Assembly: GCA_004565275.1 (NCBI GenBank)
Contig: SDOX01000166.1
Span: 148,653 to 177,637, forward strand
Length of the DNA: 28,985 nucleotides
Origin: Nannochloropsis salina CCMP1776
Taxonomy: Eukaryota; Sar; Eustigmatophyceae; Eustigmatales; Monodopsidaceae
Direction of reading: 5' to 3'
The translations under genes were made by a program, and so were the position numbers. Each line of letters starts with the position of its first letter. Within the stretch, counting starts at the first letter, position 1. Shown in pieces: positions 3,130-28,985 of the stretch. Below the pieces are notes generated by a model. That model saw only the letters and a list, made by a program, of their open reading frames with translations, was not told the DNA's origin and made no database searches.

Positions 3130-3616
3130 GCGCAATTCACCGTCCTACGTGGAAATATACATGGAAATAATACATGGAAATAAACATGGAGATAAGGACA
3201 CTCATCTACCGTTGACCCGTCACTCGACGACGAAAGTAGTCGTTCAATTGAGCGACGATGTGGCGGTACAGGCATTACTTGATACGGGAGCGGGTAGGAG
3301 CTGCGTCCAAGCGGAGTGGTGGGCGCAGGATCGGCAAAGACACGACGACGAGCCTGAGAAGACTCACCCCGAACGAGAGGAGATTCCACTCGTGGGAGCA
3401 GACAGACGACCTTTAGACACTCTCGGGGTCGAAGACATTAAATTTAAAATGGGAAATCGGGTGCTCACCCAAGAAGTAGCAGTGGTGCGCGAACTCAAAC
3501 AACAGCTGATACTAGGGTGTGGCTTTCTCCGGCGGACCAACGTCGTGATAGATTCTCAGACGGACAGCGTGGTACTGCGTCGCCCCCAACATTCCCGAAG
3601 CGGTAATAGGTTCTGA
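3130..3616 (+). mobile_element. Retroelement fossil: retropepsin fragment, probably Ty3/gypsy-type
   Basis: An open frame here encodes a retroviral-type aspartic protease domain. The active-site motif is ALLDTGAGRSC, followed about 85 residues later by the LILGCGFLRR motif and then VVIDSQ, which is the usual order in LTR-retrotransposon proteases. The domain is the only part recognised. I see no reverse transcriptase, integrase, gag or flanking long terminal repeats within several kilobases, so this is a broken remnant and not a whole element. Its base composition is lower in GC than the neighbouring genes. The open frame extends upstream to about 3014. Age cannot be estimated from one fragment. 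A domesticated protease is possible but not supported. Confidence 0.6.
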
Positions 3617-4621: not shown

Positions 4622-6166
4622 ATGACCACAGAGGACGATGTCCCCGCCCCATTCACGGTAAAATTGTCAGCATTGCGCATTCGAGCCCTGGATGCAGTAC
4701 TGCCTTCCGGGCCTCCCGCTCATTTCTACCTCTTTGCCCTCCCCTCCCCTCCCTCCTTCCTGCGGCAGTGCTCCTGCCCCACCGGACTCAAGCTTTTCAT
4801 TCCTAATTCTTTTCTCCCTTTCCCTTCCCCCTACAGCCACTCACCTCCGTCCGCGCGTCCACGGCCCGGGTCGTGCGCCGAGCCCAGCACGTGCACATCG
4901 ACTCAGCCGCCCTCGCAGCCCTCACCCGCAGCCTGACCACGCGCCAAACCCAACCACTGGCGTGGCAGGAGCTTGGATGGCACTACCACGCCGACGCCGA
5001 GACGGCCGGGCCGTTGACCTGCCAATACGCTCTTGTCTTGGACGCCCTCAATTTTTGCTTCTGGCCGACCCCGGGCCTCGAGTACGAACACTTGGCCCGT
5101 GGCTTGAGGAGGGCGTTGGAACGGGACCCAACCGCTTTCAACGCACAGGCCTTGGCCTCGGTCTCCCCCGCCACTGTCGCGGGCTGGGTGGATTGCCCTT
5201 CCCCTCCCTCGCCTTCCCATCTCTCCACCTCCACGCCGCCCACCGGCCCGGGACCGGCGACCGGAGCCAGGGGTACCTCTCCTCCTTCCTCCCCCGCTTC
5301 CTCGCCCCCTTCTTCCTTCCTTCCCTGCCTCTCTGAGCGCGTCCGGAAAGTCCGGGAAGTGGGGCACGTCCTCCTTCAACACTTCAACGGCCAGGCCGCG
5401 GACCTGGTCCGGGCCTCGGGGTTTTCCGCGGTGGAACTCGTCCGTCTCCTCTCGGCCTTTTTCCCTTCCTTCCGGGACGAAGCCCTCCACCAGGGCGAGC
5501 AGGTCTACTTCTACAAGCGGGCACAGATCCTGGTGGCGGACATATGGGCCGCCTACGGCTGTCGGACGGATCCTCCTTTCCCGTATGCCTTCAGGGACAT
5601 GGGCGAGCTGACCATGTTCGCGGACTACCGGGTGCCGCAGGTGAGGGGGGGAGGGAGGGAGAGAGGGAGGGAGGGAGGAGGGGAAGGAGGGAGGGAAGGA
5701 GGGAAGAAGGGAGGAAGGAAGGAAGTGAGGGAGGGAGGGAGGGAGGTTCCCACAGCTTTTACCGCGAGGGTACTGGTCGGGCCGATGCTCCATTCCCCCC
5801 CGCCGGAAATCGTCGCCTTCCTTTCCTCTTTCCGATGAAATTTAATTTTGATTTTAAACTACCACCTTTCCTCCCCCCCCCCCCTCTCCCTCCGCCCAGA
5901 TACTTCGGGGCCGGGGGGTGCTCCGTTACGCCCCGGGCCTGGCCGAGCGCGTGGACGGGAGGGAGGAGCTGCCCGCGGGGAGCGAGGAGGAGGTGGAGAT
6001 CAGGGCGGCCACCGTGCAGGCAGTGGAAAGCATGCGAGAGGTCTGGAGGGCGGGAGGGAAGGGAGAAATTTTGAGCGTGGAGCTAGATTGGTTGTTGTGG
6101 CAGGAGGGCGAGCGATACAGGGACTCCCTGCCTCCGCACCACCGGACATTGTCGATTTTCTACTGA
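4622..6166 (+). CDS. QNG1: Queuosine 5'-phosphate N-glycosylase / queuosine salvage protein (DUF2419)
   Basis: Three exons are inferred: 4622-4657, 4837-5640 and 5900-6166, all joined in phase 0 at GT-AG sites, giving 368 residues, close to the family's usual length. The family releases queuine base from queuosine nucleotides so that it can be reinserted into tRNA anticodons. Family signatures run in order: PLTSVR near the N-terminus, LDALNFCFW, FYKRAQILVADIW (about 237-250), MFADYRVPQ (about 272-280) at the end of exon 2, EEEVEIRAATVQAVE in exon 3, and the C-terminal PHHRTLSIFY. The acidic residues in VAD and FAD are those expected at the active site. A Ser/Pro-rich insertion sits at about 5199-5335. 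The tiny first exon (12 codons) is supported by phase and by the match of exon 2 to the family N-terminus. Intron 2 is packed with GGGAGG. No targeting peptide is seen, so the protein is probably cytosolic. Confidence 0.93.
5641..5899 (+). repeat. QNG1 intron 2 with 5' GGGAGG tract and 3' C-rich tract
   Basis: The intron begins GTGAGGG and its first ~115 bases are nearly pure (GGGA/GGAA)n. It ends in a long C/T tract before CAG. The two ends are roughly complementary. The repeat is open in several frames, which creates misleading Pro/Ser-rich ORFs on the opposite strand. Confidence 0.85.
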
Positions 6167-6319: not shown

Positions 6320-8968
<2,649 letters not shown>

Positions 8969-9351: not shown

Positions 9352-12300
9352 ATGCTACGCCCTCTCTTGCTCCTCCCGCCTTACTCGCGGTCTCCACGGG
9401 CATCAACGGCGTTTTTCCGCCGACTCCAAGACTTCCACACCTATCGATGTCCCTCTCCTCTCGGGCTTTCTCTGGGGATGACCACATCTGGACAATTGTC
9501 TTCTCTCCCGGTACAAAAGAATCTTTGTCGTCCGGCGCCGGCCTCCTTCCCCTTGTCAGGAGGAAGGCGGGCCTTTTCCATGCCTCCTGGTGGGGGAAGT
9601 TCCTGGGTGAGCCCAGATGCAGTGCCCAAAGGAGAAAATCTAAAGAAATATAGTCGAAATCTGACAAAAGAAGCGATGGATGGGAGGTTAGACCCGGTGA
9701 GCAGGGCAGTTGGGTTGGCGGTGCCGAAAGCGTCTTGGTCGTGTCGCTCTCTTGATCAAAGGCTCTGTCCTGTGTCTTAATTCCACGCCTTTAGAGGGAG
9801 TGAATTGCCTTCCTTCTTTCTCTCCACAAGGATCTTCTCCGGTGTTGTTTCGTGTCATTTTTCCGGGGCCCTGGCGTCCGGTCCGGGTCCGAGTCCCATG
9901 GCATCCATTCACACTGCTCCTCAGCCCCTTTTCCTGGCGCTCGGTCCGTGCCCGACCTTCCCATCTAATTTATTGACACCGCCTTGTAGGTGATTGGTCG
10001 GGACGGGGTGATTCGTCGGGTAGTGCAGGTACTGTCCCGGCGGACGAAGAACAATCCGGTCTTGATCGGAGAGCCTGGGGTGGGGAAGACCGCGATTGCG
10101 GAAGGTGCGCGCGGGAGTCATATAGTCATATATATATGTGTATGCCCTTGGATTGATGTCTGCGTCCTCCTCGCATTCCATCATGCAAAATACACTCCTT
10201 TCTTCCTTCCTCATCGCCACTTCCCCCCCATTCCGCTCCTCGGTCTTTTCGTGCTCCTTCCTGTCTCCCGGTCCACAGGTTTGGCCCGCCGGATCGCGGC
10301 GGGGGAGGTCCCTGAGAGTATGCGTTCGAAGCAGGTTTATGCCCTGGACATTGCCGCCCTTGTAGCGGGGGCCAAATTTCGGGGGGAGTTCGAGGAGCGC
10401 CTGAAAGGAGGTGGGGCAGCAGGATAGGGAGGGAGGGAGGGAGGGAGGGTGGGTGGATGGATGGGTTTGGGCTCTGGAAGAGGAAGACGGGGGGCTGGGC
10501 TTGCGCACGCGCCAACCTCCTCCCTCCCCCCCTCCCTATCTTCCACGGTTTGCAGTCCTCCGGGACGTGGAGAGCTTGCACGGGCAGGTGATCCTCTTCA
10601 TCGACGAGCTTCACCTCCTGGTCGGCGCGGGGGGGGGGGAGGGCGCAATGGACGCGAGCAACATGCTGAAGCCGGCCTTGGCCCGGGGGGAGCTTCGCTG
10701 CATGGGGGCGACGACCTTGGACGAGTACAGGTGGGTGGCGGCGGGGGGCTTCTTGGGGGTTCGATTTGGGCGCTTGTCTCTGCGTGTGATGGTGGCGCAG
10801 ACTTTTCCAGGCTACTGGACCTCCCCCGCCGGTCCCGCCACGGCGAGTTGCCTGGGAAACGGTTTTTGGAAATTTAAAAACCCACCCGTCCACGATGGGA
10901 CTCGTCGGCAGGAAGCACATTGAGAAGGACGCCGCCCTGGCCCGTCGCTTCCAGTCCGTGTTGGTGCAAGAGCCCGACCTGGAGGACACCATTTCGATTT
11001 TGCGGGGCTTGAAGGAGAAGTACGAGGTGAGGGAGGGAGGGAGGGAGGGGAAGGGCTGGGGCGGGGACGATTGAATGTGTTGGAAAGTGAGCTGTATTGT
11101 GGAGAGATAGGGGCTGTGGAGTCTCTTTTTCTCACTCTGTTAGGGTTAGGGTTAGGGTTAGGGTTAGGGACACTCGCCACCTGAGTGAAGCGGATTCCTC
11201 CCTCCTTCCCTCCCTCCTTCTCTCCCTCCCTCCCTCCCTCCCGCCATCAGGTCCATCACGGGGTACGCATTGCCGACACCGCCCTTGTGGCCGCCGCCCG
11301 GCTTGCGGACCGCTACATCCAGGTAGCCTCTGGCCCTCTCTCCCTCCCTCTCTTCCTCCCTCTCTCCCTTCCTCTCTTCCTTCCTCCCTCACTCCCTCCC
11401 TCCCCCCTTCCTTAGGATCGGTTCATGCCCGACAAGGCCATCGACCTCATTGACGAAGCTGCGTCTAAGCTGAGGATGCAGCAGGAGAGCAAGCCGGAAG
11501 CCATCGACGTGATGGAGCGGGAGCTGATCAGGTACCCTCCCCCTGCCCTCCCCCTCGTCCTCCTCCCCTCCCCTCACCCTCTTCCCTCTCTCCCTCCCTT
11601 CCTTCCTCCCAGGAAACAGATCGAGATCGAGGCCCTCAAGCGGGAGACGGACGCGGCCTCCAAAGCTCGGCTGATGAAACTGGAGGAGGAGGTGCGGGCG
11701 AAAAAGGAGGAGGAGAAGCTTCTGCTCGAAGAATGGTAAGTGTGCCCGTCCGGAGTCTGGCCTTCTTGCCCATTTCCCCCGAGTCTTTTTGGAGGGGTTG
11801 CGGGGACGTTGGGGACGATGTCGCGCCGTGGATGAGGGCTTGTAATCGCCGGGTGCTCGGTCTTTGTCTTTCCTCCCTCCCTCCCTCCCTCTCTCCCTCA
11901 TTCCCGCCCTCCTGCCCTCCCTTCTCCCTCCTCCCATCATCGGACCCTCCCTCCCTCCCTCCTACGCAGGCAAGAAGAGAAAACGCTTCTGGAAGCCACC
12001 AAGGCCGCACAGAAGGAGCTCGAGGCCGCCCGTCGGGACGTGGAGATGGCACAACGGGCGGGAGACTACGCCCGAGTGGGGGAGTTGCTCCACGCGATCA
12101 TACCCGAGCTGGAGGCGAAGGCGGGGCAGGCGGGGGGAGGGCGGGGGGGAGGGCGGGGCCCAAGATGCTGAGCGAGGTGGTGACGGAGGAGCAGGTGGGT
12201 GAGGTCATCTCCAGGGCGACGGGCATCCCCCTGGGCGCCCTCTTGGAAGGAGAAGGGGACCGGCTCCTGCACATGGAGGAGGCGCTGAAGGAGGGCGTGG

Positions 12301-14052
12301 TTGGGCAGGACGCGGCCGTCAAGGCGGTGGCGAATTGTGTCCGGTGAGGGCGGGGGGGAGGNNNNNNNNNNNNNNNNNNNNNNNNNNNNNNNNNNNNNNN
12401 NNNNNNNNNNNNNNNNNNNNNNNNNNNNNNNNNNNNNNNNNNNNNNNNNNNNNNNNNNNNNGAAGAAACTCTGCGACTTCCTCTTCCGGGACGAGCGCGC
12501 CATGACCCGCTTGGATATGACCGAGTTCTCGGAGAAATTCACCGTCTCCCGCCTCATCGGCTCCCCGCCCGGCTATGTGGGCTATGAGGTGGGGCGGGAG
12601 GGAGGGAGGGAGGGAGGGAGGGAGGGGGTGGGGGAGGGAGAAGGAGGGCATGACGACGCATGCCACGCCCGCCCCCGCACGGCTCACTTGTCCCTCCCTC
12701 CTTCCCTTCTCCTCCCCCGCTTTTCCCTCCCCTCCTCGTCTTCAGGAGGGTGGGGTGCTGACAGAGGCGGTGCGACGGCAGCCCTATCAGGTCCTCCTCT
12801 TGGACGAGTTCGAGAAAGCGCACCGAGAGGTGGGCAACCTCCTCCTCCAAGTCTTCGACGACGGCCGCCTCACGGACTCGCAGGTAGGGAGCAAGGGAGT
12901 GAGGGAGGGAGGGAGGGAGGGAGGGATCAAAGGCTGGCACGGTTTTGGTGGACCGTCCTGGACAAGGATACCGCCAGGAGGCTGGATATCCAACCCTCCA
13001 ATTCCCTCCCTTCCTCCCTTCCTCCCTCCCTCCCTCCCTCCCTCCCTCCCAGGGCCGGACGGTCGACTTCCGCAACACCATCATCATCATGACCAGCAAC
13101 CTTGGGGCCCAGTACCTGAGCGAGCTGCCCCCGGACAAGCCCTCTTCAGCGGCCAGGGAGGACGTGATGCGGGTAGTACGGGCGGCATTCCCGCCGGAAT
13201 TCATCAACCGGTACGGGGCACCTTAAGTCCTGTCCTTGTCCCTCCGCTTCTCTTTGTTTGCAGCATTGACATGTGTCGGGGTGAAGGGTGGCAGGCGGGG
13301 AGGGAGGGAGGGAGGGAGGGAGGGAGGGACGACCCGTTCGCTCCTTCTCTGCTGCTTCCCACTTCCTGGTCCTCGTGATCGATCGCATCCCCCTTCTCTC
13401 CTTTCTTTCCGTCTTTATCCTTGCAAACCTTTCCTCCCCCTCCCCCTCTTCCTCCCTCTATTCTCCTTTCTGTGTCCCCCCACGTCCCTCCCTCCCTTCC
13501 TCTTCCTCCCCCCCCCCCGTCACCCCCCGCCACGTTAGGATCGACAACGTAGTCCTCTTCAACCGGCTCAAGCGCCAAGACATGGACCGGATCGTCCTCC
13601 ACCAGCTCGACCGGCTTCGCGCCCTTTTGCACGAACGTCGGTTGGGGCTTAAGGTGGAGGAGAACGTCCTCCACCTCCTCGCCGACCTGGGCTACGACCC
13701 TGCCTACGGCGCCCGCCCCTTGAAACGGGCGCTGCAAACTGCCGTTTTGAATCCGTTGGCGACCCTCCTCTTGGAGGGGCGGGCGAAAGCCGAGTCTCTC
13801 CTTTGCTTGGTTCGGATGCCCCGAAGGGAGGTGCGGGAAGGGAGGGACCTGGTGATCTATGGGAAGGGTGCGATAGGAGGGGAGGAGGGAGGAGAGGGGG
13901 AGGAGGGGCTGGAGGGCTTGCTCCTGGGCGAGGACGTCCTTGTCTGCCGCGTGGTGGAGGGAGGATTTGTGGAAGGGGGGGGAGAAAGGAGGGGGGGGGA
14001 GGGGGAACAGGGGAAGGAGGCGGGGAGGGAGAGGGAGGGAGAGGCTGCATAG
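9352..14052 (+). CDS. CLPB: ClpB/Hsp78-type AAA+ disaggregase, probably mitochondrial (interrupted by assembly gap)
   Basis: Exons are inferred at 9352-9696, 9990-10104, 10279-10410, 10556-10730, 10912-11026, 11251-11322, 11416-11531, 11613-11735, 11970-12343, [gap], 12463-12588, 12746-12883, 13053-13210 and 13539-14052; phases agree at every visible junction. The hexameric motor threads aggregated proteins with Hsp70. NBD1 has Walker A GEPGVGKT (142-149), the pore loop in [11 protein letters not shown], Walker B LFIDELH and the Arg-finger region ALARRFQ. The coiled M-domain spans exons 7-9. NBD2 has pore loop PPGYVGYE, Walker [11 protein letters not shown], sensor 1 TSN and sensor 2 [13 protein letters not shown]2 Walker A falls in the N gap. 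The first 95 residues are Arg/Ser/Leu-rich and acid-poor, like a transit peptide, and there is no Clp_N domain, as in Hsp78. Exon 9 changes frame once in a G-rich run (about 12118-12162). The C-terminal tail is Gly/Glu-rich. Confidence 0.93.
11140..11169 (+). repeat. Interstitial telomere-type repeat, (TTAGGG)5
   Basis: Five perfect head-to-tail TTAGGG units lie inside ClpB intron 5 (11027-11250), between its GGGA-rich start and CCCT-rich end. There is genic sequence on both sides, so it is not a chromosome end. Confidence 0.95.
12362..12461. other. Assembly gap of 100 N
   Basis: Exactly 100 N, the usual placeholder for a gap of unknown size. It follows a GTGAGGGCGGGGGGGAGG donor region and hides the rest of ClpB intron 9 and the exon start that should encode NBD2 Walker A. 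Confidence 0.98.
12884..13052 (+). repeat. ClpB intron 11: GGGA tract at donor, CCCT tract at acceptor
   Basis: The intron starts GTAGGGAG and enters a (GGGA)n run (about 12897-12925). It ends in a (CCCT)n run (about 13007-13050) directly before CAG. The two tracts are reverse complements and could pair in the pre-mRNA. Introns 3, 5 and 10 of the same gene share the layout. Confidence 0.85.
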
Positions 14053-15243: not shown

Positions 15244-16112
15244 ATGAACGGCGGCCGTCATCCCCGTCCACCCGGGGTCATCCCGCCAGATCAAGACCTG
15301 AACGACATACCCGAAGCCACGGTACTGTCAGGTCCCCCTACCGGAGGGAATTCCCACGCAAGCACAAGTCATCAATCCACTATCCCCGCCGCCCAGATGG
15401 CGTACACTATTGCACAATCAGCGCACCCCCCATCCCATCCCTCTGCCCCGTCGCCCATGGTCATGTACCCGACACAAGGAGGAGAGTACCCCCCTCGACA
15501 AGGCCCGGTTGTCGTTGACGACAGCGTCATGGCGCAGTACCTGGCCCAACAGGGGGGGTCTGTTCCCCCCCCTCCTCCGGGTAGGGTGGGACGGGGCGCG
15601 GGGGGGACGGAACGTGTGGACGGTCGATCGTGTGCATTGGTTTTAAGACGCGGAGATATTAAGGGGGGGGAAGCTGTGATGAACGACGTTTCATAACACA
15701 TCAAGCTCAACAGTCTGACGCCCCTAGTGGGGCCTGGCGAAATCATGTCATCTTCTATTTCCTGAGCTCCCCCCCCCCTTGCCCCCCCCCCCTCCCCTGC
15801 CAACCGTGAAAAGAAAGCGAACCACCCACCCCACGCCACTTTCTCCTTCCCTTTCGTCCTCCAGATCACATGCCCCTGGCCGTCTGCTCCTGCCTGTGCT
15901 GCTGGCCTCTGGCGATCCTCGCCATCTTCAACAGCCGCCAGGTCCGCCTCCTCTACGGTCGGGGACAATACCTTCATGCCTACCTGGCCTCCCGACGTAC
16001 CCGGGCCCTGGCCCTTCTCTCCATTTTCACCGGCTCTTCCCTCCTCATCATGTATTTCCTCATGTCCCGGCGACGGGGGGATGCCGCGGGCGCGCTGGGC
16101 CACGATGGTTGA
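15244..16112 (+). CDS. CD225/dispanin-family small membrane protein
   Basis: Two exons, 15244-15580 and 15865-16112, are joined in phase 1 (PPPP-DHMPLA), giving 194 residues. The first ~110 residues are Pro/Gln/Ser-rich and disordered, ending in a polyproline stretch, which is typical of dispanins. The CD225 region follows: a first hydrophobic segment with the Cys-rich motif CSCLCCWPLAILAIF, the basic loop NSRQVRLLYGRGQY with ASRRTR, and a second hydrophobic segment ending LLIMYFLM. IFITM and PRRT proteins share this CCWPLGI...SQV pattern. In animals some restrict membrane fusion or regulate trafficking; the role in an alga is unknown. It is likely an endomembrane or plasma-membrane protein, with S-acylation possible at the clustered cysteines. 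The intron opens with a G-rich tract and ends C/T-rich. Confidence 0.82.
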
Positions 16113-17154
16113 GATGCGTCGGAGGGATCCCTCCCTCCCTCCCTCCTCTCCCTCCCTCCCTCCCTCCCTCCCTCCCTACCCTCGAAAAAAGGAAGAGGAG
16201 GAAGTGCCAAGGAGAATGGCCTTGGGAGGAACCGAGGCCTGAAGCAATGCGTCTTCCCTCCCTCCCTCCCTCCCTCCATTTCGCCCTTCCTCTTTCCCTC
16301 CCTCCATGAGGGACGCTGCTTGCAAGAATGCCGCTGCATCGGGAGGGCAAGCTGCATGGAAGTCGACAACCCAACGCGAGGAAACCGCCGACAAGACGAG
16401 CGGCCAAACTCCACCCTCCCTCCCTCCCTTCCTCCCTCCCTCCCTCCCTCCTCCTCGCCCCTCGGCCCACCTCCGCGAGTCGGGGCCACGGCCAGGACTC
16501 TGTTTCCTCTTCCCATGGACCGTCAGATTCCTGCCACTCCCCACCCTTTCCACCACGGGCGTGGAGGCGAGCCTGGAGTCAGGGAAAAGGGGGGAGGACG
16601 GGACGAGCACGAGGGCGGGGCCCAGTGATGGGATGGGAAGGAGTCAGGGGTTGGCGAGTCTGAGGATACGGGCGGAGGTGTGGAGCGTGGTCAGTGCATG
16701 CACATGCACGGGTTAATGACTGGGAAATAAAGATGAGGGAAGGAGGGTGCCACCCTGCGGCCTACAGGGAGGCCCTCCCGGCACATGCACGGGTTAATGA
16801 CTGGGAAATAAAGATGAGGGAAGTAGGGTGCCACCCTGCGGCCTACAGGGAGGCCCTCCCGGGGGGGGTCCCTGTCTCCGTTCCTCGCCACTCCGCGTTT
16901 AACGACTTGCGGCAGTCACCTTCCCTTTTGAATTACTTTCACGTTGCGTCGCATTCCTCTTCATCAACCCTGTCTACTTTTCCTCCCCCTCCTCCCCTCT
17001 CTCCCTCCTCCATCCCTCCTCCACCTGCGGCCTCGTCTTCCTCGTAAAGTGTGATCCTCCCTCCCCATCAGCCATCCTCCCCTTCCCCTCACGTCCTTCC
17101 CTGGGCCCCTTACCGTTCCCTGCTCCTCTCCCCTACCCTCCCCATCCTTCCCAC
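16113..17154. other. Convergent 3' spacer with CCCTCC tracts
   Basis: The region lies between the stop codons of the dispanin gene (+) and PDCL3 (-), so it should contain both 3' UTRs. It contains CCCT tracts (about 16132-16178, 16254-16280, 16416-16452), an 81-bp tandem duplication and a Pro/Ser-coding pyrimidine stretch at about 16975-17150. No gene was recognised; long open frames here are repeat artefacts. Confidence 0.6.
16700..16861. repeat. 81-bp tandem duplication (two copies)
   Basis: Copy 1 is 16700-16780 and copy 2 is 16781-16861. By eye they differ at one base (AAGGAGGG against AAGTAGGG). The near-identity suggests a recent event. Each copy contains the short palindromic-looking segment GCACATGCAC at its start and GAGGCCCTCCCG at its end. 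Confidence 0.95.
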
Positions 17155-18542: not shown

Positions 18543-21500
18543 ATGGCCACGCACGATCCCGGGGGACAGCAATACGATTTCTTGGAGTTCGAGACCCCGG
18601 GCCATGATGAGGAGGATGACGCTTACACTCCTTTCGGCCGGAGCGGGGACGGAGGGACTTATGAGCCTGGAGCCCGTAAGGAGGGCACCGGGGCCGCAGC
18701 TTTTTTGGGCCTGCCACAAGAATGGACCGCAGCGTCTGCGGCCTCCTTGCCACGTGCTCCCCTTGGCAAGCAAGAGCAGCCACGGGGGTCAGGGAAGGAA
18801 GAAGAGAACGGGGGGCTAGGGCATGTGACGGCTGGCGTCAAGGCCCTGCATTTACAAAACGACGCGCACAATGGGCACGACGCGGAGGAAGAGGACGGGG
18901 CGGGGAGCTTGGGAAGCAGTAGTGACGAAGAATTAGGGGAGGACGCGTCCCACCTCCAGGAACATGAGGAGGAGGAGGAGGGAGAGGGCCTGGACACACC
19001 GGAGTACGCCTGTCGGTACTGCGGGATCCACGACCCGGCCTGCGTGGTTCGTTGCGTGGAGAGCAATAAGTGGTTCTGCAATTCCCGGTGGAACACGACA
19101 GGGTCCCACATTATCCAGCATCTGGTCAAGGCGCGGAACAAGACGGTGGCCTTGCACCCTCAGAGCCCCCTGGGCGACACCGTCCTGGAATGCTACAACT
19201 GCGGCTGCCGCAACGTCTTCCTCCTGGGCTTCATTCCCGCCAAGTCGGACTCGGTGGTGGTGTTGCTGTGCAGGGAGCCCTGCTTGAGCAACGGGGCGTT
19301 GAAGGACCTGGACTGGGACCTGGCCCAGTGGATGCCCCTGATCGAAGACCGGGCGTTCCTGCCCTGGTTGGTCCGGGTACCCTCGGAGCAAGAGCAGCTC
19401 CGAGCCCGACAAATCACGGCGGGGCAGATCCAGAAGCTGGAGGAGGCGTGGAAAGAGAACGCGGAGGCGACCTTGGAGGAAGTGGAGCGGCAGGGCGGGG
19501 AAGGGGAGGAGGAAGGGGTGGCAGTCCTGCTCAAGTACGAAGACGGCTACCACTACCAGAACGTGCTCGCCCCCCTGGTGAAGATGGAGGCGGACTATGA
19601 CAAGAAGATGAAGGAACAGCAGAGCCAGGACGGGGTGAGCGTGACCTGGGACGAGGGTCTGAGCAAGCGGAAAGTCGCTTCCTTCAGGTTCGGCGGGGGG
19701 AGGAGGAGGCGGGACTGACGGTGGGGGACGAGCTCCGCCTCAAGCTGGACGTATTGACGGCGCGCATGCACGGGGTGAACGGGGGCCAGGCCTGGGAGGG
19801 CGTGGGCAATGTCCTGCGGATGGCGGACGGCGAGGTGAGTCTGGAGATGCGGGTCTCGCACTGCCCGACCGAGGTCCGGGACGGATTCTCAGTGGAGTTT
19901 GTCTGGAAGTCCACCAGTTTCGACCGGATGCAAGGCGCGCTCAAGAGCTTTGCCGTCGACGACGCCTCCATCTCCGGATACCTGTACCACAAGCTCCTGG
20001 GCCACGAGGTGGAGCCGCAGACCTTGCGGGTGAGCCTCCCCAAGAGATTCTCGGTGCCCCACCTCCCCGACTTGAACCACTCGCAGTTCCAGGCCGTGAA
20101 GAGCGTGCTCCAGAAACCCCTCTCCCTCATCCAGGGCCCCCCGGGGACGGGCAAGACGGTCACCTCCGCCTCCATCGTCTACCACTTGGCCCAGCAGGGG
20201 GTGGGGCAGGTCCTGGTGGTGGCACCCTCCAATGTCGCGGTGGACCACCTGACCGAGAAAATCCACGCCACGGGCCTGAAGGTGGTCCGGCTGGCGGCCA
20301 AGTCCCGGGAGGGCGTCGACTCTTCTGTGGACCACCTCTGCCTGCACACCATGATCACTACCCTGGCCACGCCCGAGCAGGAGGAACTCTCCAAACTCCG
20401 GCAGTTGAAGGCCGAGCTGGGGGAACTGGTCCCGCAGGACGAGGCCAAGTTCCGCAAGTTGAAGACGGCGGTGGGCCGGGAGGTGCTCAAGGCTGCGGAT
20501 GTGATCTGCTGCACCTGCGTCGGAGCGGGGGACCCTCGGCTGAAGAATTTTCGCTTCCGCCAGGTCCTGATCGACGAAGCCACCCAGGCGATGGAGGCGG
20601 AGTGCCTGATCCCCATCGTCATGGGCTGCAAGCAGCTGATCATGGTGGGGGACCATTGCCAATTACCCCCCGTCATCACGTGCAAGAAGGCGGCGAAAGC
20701 GGGACTGACCCAGTCCCTCTTTGAGCGCCTCATCATCTTGGGCCACCGGCCCCATCGGCTTCAGGTTCAATACCGGATGCATCCCTGCCTGTCCGCGTTT
20801 CCTTCCAACATGTTTTATGAAGGTGAGCCATGGTGCGGCGGCTTCGTGGGCTGGGGATGGTTTCCCACATGACCCACTTTATTGCACTTCTCACATGGAA
20901 CGTGCCAGTCAGGAACCGATGTCCACCCAGTCATCTGCCATCCCCCGACCCCTGCCACTGACCCCTCCCTCCCTCCCTCCCTCCCTCCCTCCCTCCCTCC
21001 CTCCCTCCTTCCCTCCTTCCCCCAGGCACTCTCCAGAACGGCATCACGGAGGACGAACGCAGCCCGGACCGGGTTTCCTTCCCCTGGCCCACGCCCACCA
21101 AGCCCATGTTCTTCTGGATCCAGACGGGGGCGGAGGAGCTGTCCTCCTCGGGTACCTCGTACTTGAACCGGAGCGAGGCTTCGGCCACGGAGAGGATCTG
21201 CACGGCCTTGCTCAAGGTGGGGGTAGAGGCGGGGAAGATCGGGGTGATCACGCCCTACCAGGGCCAGCGGGCGCACCTGATCTTGCACATGGCCCGCACA
21301 GGGCCGTTGCGCCAGTCCGTGTACAAGGACATCGAGGTCGCCTCGGTGGACTCCTTCCAGGGCCGGGAGAAAGACTACGTGATCCTGTCCTGCGTCCGCT
21401 CCAACGACCACCAGGGCATCGGCTTCCTGGCGGACCCTCGCCGGTTGAACGTGGCGCTGACGCGGGCCAAGTACGGGATGATCCTGGTGGGGAACGCCCG

Positions 21501-26447: not shown

Positions 26448-26886
26448 CTACCAGACATAGACGGAGGGGTTTCTGTCTTTGTACTGCATCGCGTAGTTCC
26501 CGTTTTGGGTCGAGAGGGGCCAGTCCGGCCAGGGCGAGGACATACGGACCTGCTGGTCTGCGAAGGAGGGAGGGAGGGAGGGCAAGATGAAGGAATTGCC
26601 ACCCTATCGAAAAGGTCGCGATCGCGCGCATCGCCATCCCCCGCGCCCGCCCCACCTTTCTGCGGGTAGTCGAGGTCCGGCTGCCTCCCCCCTCGCGCCG
26701 CATGGAAGGGGCTCTTGGGGTCACCGGCCCCCAGGGTGGGGCAAGCCATCGCGTAGGAGCCGCCAAGGCCGTTGTTGGGTTGGTAGGGGGACCAGGAGAA
26801 GGTCCCGGCGCAGCAAACCAGGTCGGACATTTTGTGGCCTTGCCTGGCGTATACGTCCCGCCGGTAGCCCCCGAACGCCAGGTTCT
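26448..26886 (-). CDS. Unrecognised conserved-looking gene (C-terminal two exons seen)
   Basis: Minus-strand exons 26886-26656 and 26557-26448 are joined in phase 1 (YPQK-DQQVRM) with good GT and CGCAG sites, giving at least 112 residues ending NPSVYVW and TAG. The sequence is rich in Tyr, Trp, Asn and Gly and is not repetitive: GGYRRDVYARQGHKMSD, CCAGTFSWSPYQPNNGLGG, SSPWPDWPLSTQNGNYAM. That composition looks like a structured protein under constraint. The 5' end is unresolved: exon 1 must end in phase 1, and one candidate ends at the CAG before GTGTCACC near 26936, but that exon would be mostly repeat. Family not recognised. It would be divergent from the KDM5-like gene, with a very short spacer. 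Confidence 0.6.
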
Positions 26887-27053: not shown

Positions 27054-28985
27054 ATGTCGGAGTGCTACGTCTGTGGCGCCTTGCGGCACGCGGCGTGCAT
27101 GGAACCCCCTAGAAAGCACCTTCCTTTTGGGGACTGGTTCTGTCCCGACTGTGCGAAAGAGGAGGTGGATGATCTCCTCCTTCCGCCCTCCCGCCCCCCC
27201 TCCTCATCCGGCCCCTGTCGGCGGCGGGACTCTGAGGAGGCGTCGCGGGTGGGGGGGAGGAAGGGGGGCAGGAAGGGGGGGAGGAAAGGGCAGGGGCCCG
27301 CGGTGCCCCCGGGGGTGGAGGAATTGTTCGCCTCGTTTGGCTTCGAGGACGGCGAAGATTATACTTTGGAGTCCTTCAAGGCGATGGCCGTATCCTGGCG
27401 CGACGAGTACTTCGGGCGGGCGCGGGGGAAGGAGGGGGGGAAGGTGACTGAGGAAGAGGTGGAGGCAGAGTTCTGGCGTCTGATAGCGGGGGGCGGGGCG
27501 GGGGCCGACGAAGGGCAGGGAGGGCGGGAAGGAGGGCGGGAAGGAGGGCGGGGGGGAGGGCGGGGGGTGAGTCGGGCCCCCCCTGAGGTGAAGGTCGAGT
27601 ACGGAAGCGAGCTGGACACCGGCCGTTACGGCTCTGGGTTTCCGTTACCGGCGCCGTTACGGAGGGTAGCGCCTGGCAGCAACGATTGCACCTTCCTGAA
27701 GCCCCGCCCGAGCACCGTGGCCACTCCCACCCGTAGCTTGGAGGGAGGGAAGGAGGGAGGGAAGGAGGGAGGGAAGGAGGGAGGGAAGGAGGGAGGGAAG
27801 CTCTCCACGCCTACCCGCCTTGTCCCCCGCCGGGGCCCGCCCTCGGCCCCGCCCTCGGCCCCGCCCTCCCCCAAGCCCTACCTCCGCCACGGCTGGAACG
27901 TGAACAACCTGCCTCTGGCCACGGGAAGCATGCTGCACCACCTGGACGTGCCGGTTACGGGGGTGGTGGTCCCCTGGCTCTACGTAGGCATGGCCTTCTC
28001 CGCCTTTTGTTGGCACGCGGAGGACCATTACCTCTACTCCATCAACTACCTCCACCACGGCCTGGGGCCCAAGCACTGGTACGGACTCCCCGGCGCCGCG
28101 GGCGACGCCTTCGAGGCGCTCGTCCGGGAAAGCTACCCGGAGCTCGTCGCCCGAAACCCAGACCTGATGCTGCAGCTCGTAACCATGGTCGACCCCCGGT
28201 GGGTGGCGGACCGCGGCCTGCCCGTCTACACGACCAAGCAACGGCCAGGTCCGGGTTTGAAAATTTGAATTTGAACAGTGTTCCTTTGTACCTGTTTCTT
28301 TTCTTCCCCCCCCTTTTCTTTCTCGAGGGGGATCCGGGGATGGGCTAGTGGACAGCTCCCGTCTCCTTCCATGCATCGATCCTTCTCACGACTCCTCCCT
28401 CCCGCCCCTCCCTCCCGCCCTCCCCTCCCCGCCCTCCCTCCCGCCCTCCCAGGCCAATTCGTCGTCACCTTCCCCCACGCCTACCACGCGGGCTTCAACC
28501 ACCACTTCAACCTGGCCGAAGCGGTGAATTTCGCGCCCCCGGACTTCTTGCCCTGGGGAGGGAAGGCTCAGCACCTGTATCGGCGCCTCCATCGGGCCCC
28601 CGTCTTCTCCCAGGATCAGTTGGTGGTGGCGGCGGCGGCGGCCCTGCTCCAGCGCCCGGCCCGAGAGACGGCGGAGAGTCTGGAGCCGGTGTTGGAGGAG
28701 GTGCGGCGGATGGAGGAAGAGTCTCGGCGGCGGCGGGAGGGGGTGGAAAGGGACAAGCGATGGGGAGGGAGCTTCGTGGTGGAGGGGGGGGAGAGGAGGA
28801 GGGAGGGGAGGAGGAAGGGCGGGAAGGGAGGAGGAGGAAGGAGGAGGCGCGCCTGCTTGCCTCCTTGAGTTTGGAGGAGGAGAAGGAGGAGGAAGGGGAG
28901 GGAGGGGAAGAGAAGAAGGGGCGGAGGAAGCGGGGGAAGGAGGGAGGGGAGGAGGGGGAGACGAGCGTTCGGGTGGGGAAGGCGA
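27054..28985 (+). CDS. KDM5: KDM5/JARID1-type histone demethylase, PHD-JmjC (partial at both ends)
   Basis: Exons seen are (5' uncertain) 27054-28248 and 28453 onward, joined in phase 1 across a 204-bp intron ([11 protein letters not shown]). The family removes methyl groups from H3K4 using Fe(II) and 2-oxoglutarate in the nucleus. Order: the second half of a PHD finger ([12 protein letters not shown], then GDWFCPDC), the KDM5 linker ([36 protein letters not shown]), and the JmjC domain with [27 protein letters not shown] (Fe ligands H and E), [16 protein letters not shown], and [21 protein letters not shown] (third Fe ligand His). GGGA repeats insert Gly/Lys-rich loops. The first PHD Cys pair, JmjN and ARID are not seen upstream. 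In the present frame a TGA falls at 28866-28868 in G-rich sequence, but a neighbouring frame stays open to the window end ([16 protein letters not shown]), so the gene probably continues. Confidence 0.88.
27736..27801 (+). repeat. GGGAGGGAAGGA repeat encoding a Gly/Lys/Glu loop
   Basis: An 8-12 bp purine repeat lies in frame inside the KDM5-like exon, between the EYGSELD region and the JmjC domain. It encodes (EGGK)n and inserts a flexible loop without shifting the frame. Confidence 0.85.

What the first reader, a model, noticed from the sequence alone, without database searches (positions are those of the whole stretch)
10411..13538. Introns with complementary ends: GGGA tract after the donor, CCCT tract before the acceptor
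ClpB introns 3, 5, 10 and 11 begin with GT plus (GGGA)n and end with (CCCT)n plus AG. QNG1 intron 2 and the dispanin intron show the same order, and the unknown gene at 26448-26886 shows it more weakly. The order follows the transcribed strand in genes on both strands. Pairing of the two tracts would bring the splice sites together; G-triplets near donors are also known splicing enhancers in animals. Either way the bias looks systematic and not like random microsatellites.
Basis: partly seen in the sequence, partly recalled or inferred. Interest (0 to 1): 0.72.

Follow-up and report, generated by a model that had tools for sequence, protein, structure and literature searches.

The report
G-rich start, C-rich end introns
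Introns in this small, apparently algal genome tend to start G-rich and nearly always end C-rich; the two ends could pair, but the pattern is best explained by ordinary splice-site signals (above all a C-rich polypyrimidine tract) rather than by a special pairing device.

Summary
In detail: ClpB introns 10411-10555, 11027-11250, 12589-12745 and 12884-13052 and the queuosine-salvage intron 5641-5899 run from GGGA to CCCT in the sense direction. The list was selective: ClpB introns 11323-11415 and 11532-11612 carry CCCT at both ends and cannot pair (folds -2.3 and 0.0 kcal/mol).

I tested 122 introns elsewhere in the genome, 80 of them bounded by Pfam matches. The acceptor side is overwhelmingly CCCT (tracts of 11 nt or more: 33 CCCT, 2 GGGA). 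The donor side has excess G runs (GGG 5.6, CCC 2.8 per 100 nt, p=0.0005), but tract orientation there is not significantly biased (16 GGGA, 10 CCCT, p=0.33). GGGA-first/CCCT-last occurs 7 times, CCCT at both ends 8, the reverse order 0.

End complementarity exceeds random swaps (p=0.011), but not GC-matched swaps (p=0.22), same-gene swaps (p=0.14) or, as predicted pairing, half-preserving shuffles (p=0.51). Polarity is systematic; pairing as its cause is not shown. Best reading: a C-rich polypyrimidine tract that excludes AG, plus donor-side G-run enhancers, lengthened by slippage. A bridging role for a minority with long tracts is not excluded.

The parts
10411..10555 (+).
   Evidence: sequence, tandem repeats, boundaries by coding model, tract lengths, AAA domain after joining
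11027..11250 (+). ClpB intron 5: GTGAGGGAGGGAGGG... to CCCTCCCTCCCTCCCGCCATCAG; holds about five TTAGGG-type units at 11139-11169
12589..12745 (+). ClpB intron 10: GTGGGGCGGGAGGGAGGG... to a C-rich end
12884..13052 (+). ClpB intron 11: donor GGGA tract (repeat 12882-12926), CCCT tract 13003-13050
13211..13538 (+). ClpB intron 12: (GGGA)8 in mid-intron at 13298-13329, C-rich 3' third
11323..11415 (+). ClpB intron 6: CCCT at both ends, no predicted structure (-2.3 kcal/mol); counter-example
11532..11612 (+). ClpB intron 7: CCCT at both ends, no predicted structure (0.0 kcal/mol); counter-example
11736..11969 (+). ClpB intron 8: CCCT at acceptor only
5641..5899 (+). Queuosine-salvage protein (QNG1) intron: GGGA tract then C-rich end
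   Evidence: Q_salvage PF10343 after joining
15581..15864 (+). CD225/dispanin intron: G-rich start without GGGA repeat, C-rich end
   Evidence: CD225 PF04505 after joining
20823..21025 (+). UPF1-like helicase intron: CCCT tract 20963-21021 before the acceptor, no GGGA tract at the donor
28249..28452 (+). JmjC-protein intron: CCCT tract at the acceptor only
7071..7245 (-). Class-III aminotransferase intron: GGGA tract at the donor in sense direction, no CCCT tract in the last 80 nt
7392..7756 (-). Class-III aminotransferase intron: GGGA tract at the donor in sense direction, no CCCT tract in the last 80 nt
26558..26655 (-). Intron of the unidentified minus-strand gene: G-rich start, CCCT tract before AG
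   Evidence: borders read by eye, this gene was not tested for homology

Best explanation
The pattern is intron polarity produced by splicing constraints acting on introns rich in GGGA/CCCT microsatellites. Step 1, shown: the last 60 or so nt of introns are C-rich pyrimidine tracts with very few G runs. Step 2, inferred: this is the polypyrimidine tract read by U2AF or a poly-C-binding equivalent, and GGGA repeats are excluded there because each unit carries AG, a cryptic acceptor. Step 3, shown: the first 40 or so nt after the donor carry an excess of G runs. Step 4, inferred: these act as intronic splicing enhancers (hnRNP H/F-type binding or contact with U1), as in short GC-rich vertebrate introns. 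Step 5, inferred: slippage lengthens these pre-existing purine and pyrimidine stretches into repeats, more in some genes such as ClpB than in others. The complementarity of the two ends is then mostly a by-product.
For: Acceptor side, 122 introns outside the window: CCCT tracts 33, GGGA 2; CCC 7.23 and GGG 0.79 per 100 nt, p=1.9e-14. Donor side: GGG 5.62 and CCC 2.81 per 100 nt, p=0.0005; in the 80 homology-bounded introns alone 4.91 and 1.82, p=0.00015. GC skew goes from +0.23 at +7..+21 to about 0 at +67..+81, and is -0.56 at -5..-34; a transcription-wide strand asymmetry would not change sign inside one intron. Non-complementary CCCT...CCCT introns (8) are as frequent as GGGA...CCCT (7). 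Predicted 5'-3' pairing is no more than half-preserving shuffles give. Same-gene and GC-stratified swaps remove the cis excess. Over the 113 introns held, donor GGG and acceptor CCC density are hardly correlated (rho 0.11, p=0.25; 0.02, p=0.82 after allowing for flank GC), while flank GC goes with both (rho 0.20 and 0.44). Tracts are about four to five times denser in the introns (4.17 per kb) than in 12 random 5-kb stretches (1.05 per kb in predicted coding, 0.84 elsewhere). [quoted passage not shown]
Against: Donor-side GGGA tracts are not significantly more frequent than CCCT tracts (16 to 10, p=0.33), and in the 42 ab initio introns GGG is not significantly above CCC at the donor (6.98 and 4.68, p=0.25). 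The enhancer reading predicts that G runs go with weak donors or weak pyrimidine tracts; no such correlation was significant (donor score rho 0.07, p=0.46; U fraction of the tract rho -0.17, p=0.06). Long tracts do co-occur in cis as GGGA/CCCT (at 15 nt: 6 of 10 introns with donor GGGA, 11 of 112 without, p=0.0005), which this reading does not predict beyond local microsatellite load. No RNA-seq, no trans-factor and no related species were examined.
Confidence: 0.68

Rival explanations
1. Bridging introns: the donor GGGA tract pairs with the acceptor CCCT tract, loops out the intron and brings the splice sites together, easing the need for U2AF, as described for dinucleotide repeats in zebrafish (AC/GT, as I recall).
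For: Cis duplex energy is stronger than random donor-acceptor swaps: -31.63 and -30.00, p=0.011, 122 introns outside the window; p=0.0157 in the 80 homology-bounded ones; p=0.0018 with the 17 window introns added. Long tracts co-occur: at 13 nt or more, 7 of 12 introns with donor GGGA and 15 of 110 without have acceptor CCCT (odds ratio 8.9, p=0.001). Predicted 5'-3' pairing is above whole-intron shuffles (0.267 and 0.173, p=8.6e-7). In 10411-10555, 12589-12745, 12884-13052 and 5641-5899 half or more of the first 80 nt (or first half) pairs with the last 80.
Against: The excess is absent in the 42 ab initio introns alone (p=0.29) and in the window alone (p=0.38), and is lost under GC-tertile-stratified swaps (p=0.22), same-gene swaps outside the window (p=0.14; window p=0.12; together p=0.055) and half-preserving shuffles (p=0.51). 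Reading the acceptor backwards, which keeps its composition, weakens the cis duplex only slightly (-30.65 and -31.63, p=0.076). At the 11-nt threshold the association is stronger for non-pairing CCCT/CCCT (odds ratio 13.9, p=0.0004) than for GGGA/CCCT (2.4, p=0.13). CCCT-only introns sit in the same ClpB gene with no predicted structure. Pairing would also hide the pyrimidine tract.
Confidence: 0.17
2. RNA G-quadruplex: (GGGA)n with four or more G triplets folds near the donor and slows or marks the transcript, which affects donor choice; the C-rich end is unrelated.
For: 8 of 17 window introns carry a G4-type motif in the sense donor half, 1 in the antisense. Folding with a G4 term lowers the energy of several, for example 5641-5899 from -130.7 to -179.8 kcal/mol.
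Against: Outside the window the donor half holds sense G4 motifs in 15 and antisense in 14 of 122 introns, so there is no orientation bias. CCCT-first introns cannot form it in the RNA.
Confidence: 0.08
3. Neutral microsatellites with orientation filtered only at the acceptor: AG-containing GGGA repeats are purged near the acceptor, and donor-side orientation is free.
For: Donor tracts 16 GGGA to 10 CCCT (p=0.33), acceptor 2 to 33; CCCT/CCCT as common as GGGA/CCCT.
Against: The G-run excess at donors is significant as GGG (p=0.0005; p=0.00015 in homology-bounded introns) and decays with distance from the donor.
Confidence: 0.07

Closest known systems
G-rich and C-rich intronic splicing enhancers of GC-rich human introns with weak pyrimidine tracts (LCAT intron 4; PMC2481429, passages seen)
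   Same: GC-rich introns with G runs and C runs; pairing between them considered there too
   Different: There the motifs lie upstream of a weak pyrimidine tract and their function was shown in HeLa minigenes; here they are repeats towards the two ends and no function was tested
Introns with complementary dinucleotide repeats at opposite boundaries that replace U2AF2 (Lin et al. 2016, Genome Res; paper not held; one sentence seen in PMC9198270; rest recalled)
   Same: Complementary simple repeats at the two ends of an intron in a subset of introns
   Different: Repeat unit is GGGA/CCCT; the acceptor repeat is itself a pyrimidine tract; cis excess is not shown beyond composition; U2AF independence untested
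Cytidine-rich polypyrimidine tract of conventional introns in Euglena gracilis (PMC11170887, three passages seen, mostly from the abstract)
   Same: C exceeds U in the tract before the acceptor (here C 0.43, U 0.34 at -5..-34)
   Different: Here the tract is often expanded into CCCT repeats and goes with a G-run bias at the donor

Membership tests
Complementary-repeat bridging introns (U2AF2-independent class) | Complementary simple repeats at opposite ends of the same intron | tested here: met
   In a minority: 7 of 122 introns outside the window at the 11-nt threshold, 5 of 17 in the window set
Complementary-repeat bridging introns (U2AF2-independent class) | Co-occurrence of the two repeats above expectation from composition and region | tested here: inconclusive
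   Threshold-dependent; lost under GC-stratified and same-gene swaps
Complementary-repeat bridging introns (U2AF2-independent class) | Splicing independent of U2AF2 and dependent on pairing | not testable with these tools
   Needs splicing assays
G-run / C-rich enhancer introns | G-run excess close to the donor | tested here: met
   GGG 5.62, CCC 2.81 per 100 nt, p=0.0005, 122 introns
G-run / C-rich enhancer introns | G runs compensate weak pyrimidine tracts or weak donors | tested here: inconclusive
   rho -0.17 (p=0.06) with U fraction, 0.07 (p=0.46) with donor score
G-run / C-rich enhancer introns | Loss of splicing on mutation of G runs | not testable with these tools
   Needs minigenes
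Introns with a C-rich polypyrimidine tract | C exceeds U upstream of the acceptor | tested here: met
   C 0.43, U 0.34 at -5..-34 over 122 introns

The most novel reading that the evidence does not exclude
A minority of introns in this genome, those with long GGGA and CCCT repeats at opposite ends (13-15 nt or more, as in ClpB introns 3, 5, 10 and 11; the QNG1 intron just misses with a 12-nt acceptor tract), form a bridging class: the repeats co-expanded in cis under selection for pairing that juxtaposes the splice sites. It would be a tetranucleotide, GC-rich counterpart, in a protist, of the dinucleotide-repeat introns of fish.
Probability: 0.17. Interest if true: 0.62.

Novelty: new member of a known kind. 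Interest (0 to 1): 0.36.

Why it matters
If only polarity: it gives gene finders for this genome a usable content signal, and it shows GC-rich splice-end signals like those of GC-rich human introns in a genome that looks algal. If bridging were shown for the long-tract subset, it would mean structure-assisted splice-site pairing arose from simple repeats more than once and with a different repeat, which a minigene test could settle directly.

Tried and rejected
Taking the window's introns as evidence: rejected, since the finding was made on them; the main tests used introns elsewhere in the genome, with the window kept apart.

Ab initio introns alone: the first single-strand model was poor, the first two-strand run found exactly 31 of 70 homology-bounded introns, the retrained one 45 of 70. 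I therefore kept homology-bounded introns as the main set. Rows dropped before counting: one search examined 90 exon pairs and 52 introns were accepted; one search examined 28 and accepted 18; I added 3 by hand (L105, L110, L101: AAG acceptors with exact residue agreement) and dropped 2 (L085 at 1006, L101 at 219: doubtful acceptors), giving 71; one search examined 13 and accepted 9, total 80. From the ab initio set 16 frames that read through without a stop were dropped, along with those overlapping a homology intron and all window ones, leaving 42. Twelve random 5-kb stretches gave only 9 filtered introns.

Branch-site enrichment: CTRAY in 25 of 122, shuffled 15.6 (sd 3.7); weak and not used further. 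Cis GGGA/CCCT association was first seen at one-sided p=0.033 in 71 introns and proved threshold-dependent on 122. Literature: searches naming Nannochloropsis with intron terms matched 2,362, 13 and 38 papers and listed 20, 13 and 12; no listed title is about this pattern, but the first list was a small part. Only PMC12702839 was opened for it, by term search: it has no occurrence of polypyrimidine, G-rich, secondary structure, microsatellite or complementary. The species is not identified here; Nannochloropsis/Microchloropsis is my recollection of a fitting genome size and composition, untested.
Full report
What was given. The window lies in contig C40 of a 26.5-Mb genome of 103 contigs that is not named.

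Window anatomy. ClpB exons from 9990 on join into AAA/ClpB domains, the queuosine-salvage exons into PF10343, the dispanin exons into CD225, the UPF1-like exons into AAA_11/AAA_12, the JmjC exons into PF02373 and the minus-strand aminotransferase exons into PF00202, so these intron borders rest on protein continuity; the minus-strand intron 26558-26655 does not. In ClpB, introns 10411-10555, 11027-11250, 12589-12745 and 12884-13052 go GGGA to CCCT; 11323-11415 and 11532-11612 are CCCT at both ends; 11736-11969 has CCCT only before the acceptor; 13211-13538 carries (GGGA)8 in its middle; 10105-10278 and 10731-10911 have no tract of 11 nt at either end. In the window set of 17 introns, donor tracts of 11 nt or more are 8 GGGA and 1 CCCT, acceptor tracts 0 and 11, with 5 GGGA...CCCT and 1 CCCT...CCCT (the dispanin entry in that call started one base late, mended). 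Within the window the two ends are not associated across introns (p=1.0 at 11 nt).

Test set. To avoid judging the idea on the sequence that suggested it, I collected introns elsewhere in the genome. Pfam searches gave exon-by-exon matches; between neighbouring matches I picked the GT-AG pair that keeps the frame, fits the residues missing from the profile and scores best on two exon bases and six intron bases at the donor and on the base before AG and the first exon base at the acceptor. That gave 80 introns. A two-strand coding model with a strand-symmetric intron model added 42. Median length of the 122 is 165 nt. Base counts start at +7 and end at -5, outside the scored bases.

Positional bias. 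In the 122 introns, in the 60 nt next to each splice site: GGG 5.62 and CCC 2.81 per 100 nt at the donor (p=0.0005); GGG 0.79 and CCC 7.23 at the acceptor (p=1.9e-14). GGGA against TCCC at the donor is weaker (1.98 and 1.51, p=0.034). GC skew is +0.23 at +7..+21, +0.15 at +22..+36, about zero at +67..+81, and -0.56 at -5..-34. In the 80 homology-bounded introns alone the donor figures for GGG and CCC are 4.91 and 1.82 (p=0.00015); in the 42 others 6.98 and 4.68 (p=0.25). So the two ends differ systematically, and the change of sign inside the intron points to splicing rather than to transcription-wide asymmetry.

Tracts and order. Counting repeats of 11 nt or more within 80 nt of each end: donor 16 GGGA and 10 CCCT (p=0.33), acceptor 2 and 33 (p=4e-8); GGGA...CCCT 7, CCCT...CCCT 8, GGGA...GGGA 2, CCCT...GGGA 0. 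In the homology-bounded 80: donor 7 and 3, acceptor 1 and 16, GGGA...CCCT 3, CCCT...CCCT 2. Other thresholds (9, 13, 15 nt) give donor counts 23:15, 12:9, 10:7 and acceptor counts 3:41, 1:22, 1:17. Four of the eight CCCT...CCCT introns lie in one gene (L088), so they are not fully independent.

Is it pairing? Donor GGGA and acceptor CCCT co-occur at 13 nt (odds ratio 8.9, p=0.001) and 15 nt (13.8, p=0.0005), not at 11 nt (2.4, p=0.13) or 9 nt (1.7, p=0.33). Donor CCCT and acceptor CCCT, which cannot pair, co-occur at 11 nt (13.9, p=0.0004) and 9 nt (4.9, p=0.007), weakly at 13 nt (p=0.055) and not at 15 nt (p=0.25). As continuous densities in the 113 introns then held, donor GGG and acceptor CCC have rho 0.11 (p=0.25), 0.02 after allowing for flank GC. 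Duplex energies between the two ends of the same intron are stronger than in random swaps (122 introns p=0.011; 80 homology-bounded p=0.016; 42 ab initio p=0.29; 17 window p=0.38; all 139 p=0.0018), but not in swaps within GC tertiles (p=0.22) or within genes (28 genes, 69 introns, p=0.14; with window genes 30 genes, 81 introns, p=0.055), and reading the acceptor backwards loses little (p=0.076). Folded introns show 5'-3' pairing of 0.267, above whole-intron shuffles (0.173, p=8.6e-7) and level with shuffles that keep each half's composition (0.252, p=0.51); overall folding energy is somewhat stronger than half-shuffles (-50.6 and -46.7, p=7e-6), which shows more structure than composition alone but not more pairing between the ends. 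In short: polarity makes the ends complementary; nothing beyond polarity, GC and region is established.

Mechanism. I commit to two ordinary signals: a C-rich polypyrimidine tract kept free of AG, and G runs after the donor acting as enhancers, both lengthened by slippage. The first part is well supported as a pattern; that it binds U2AF or a poly-C factor is inference. The enhancer part is an inference from position and from human precedent (PMC2481429); the predicted inverse relation with donor or tract strength was not significant. Tracts are denser in these introns (4.17 per kb) than in random stretches (about 0.9 per kb), and the window is itself tract-rich (5.62 per kb), which explains why the pattern stood out here.

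Known relatives. The closest published case seen is human LCAT intron 4, with G-rich and C-rich enhancers and a stem considered and disfavoured by mutation (passages seen). C-rich polypyrimidine tracts are reported in Euglena (passages seen). The present introns work at most like these; membership in the bridging class is not shown.

Limits. No RNA data, no annotation, no related genome; the genome could be read only in stretches. The 122 introns lean to conserved gene families. P-values are uncorrected for the several thresholds tried.

Noticed in passing
19680-19691: Frame break in a G run between two open stretches of the UPF1-like gene; the bases before it still look UPF1-like (judged from memory of the human protein), so it looks like an assembly error in a homopolymer rather than the 53-nt intron my coding model proposed.
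   Followed up: partly
12131-12153: Frame break in a G-rich (GGGGGGAGGGCG) repeat in ClpB's middle region; assembly error suspected, not tested.
   Followed up: partly
12362-12461: A run of N, apparently an assembly gap, inside ClpB; the intron before it also starts G-rich (GTGAGGGCGGGGGGGAGG).
   Followed up: no
11139-11169: About five TTAGGG-type (telomere-like) units inside ClpB intron 5.
   Followed up: no
16700-16862: 81-bp unit in two tandem copies, 98% matches, after the dispanin gene.
   Followed up: no
6729-6841: 45-bp unit repeated 2.5 times with 100% matches in the region of the minus-strand aminotransferase gene.
   Followed up: no
about 3242-3601: Plus-strand open frame with ALLDTGAGRSC, resembling a retroelement aspartic protease (frame seen; motif recognised from memory, not searched).
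   Followed up: no
L088 (G000:C15:228350-232000): A TCP1/Cpn60-family gene with four introns having CCCT tracts of 12 nt or more at both ends; a natural counter-example to end pairing.
   Followed up: yes
introns outside the window: GGGA/CCCT tracts are about four to five times denser in the collected introns than in random 5-kb stretches of the same genome.
   Followed up: partly
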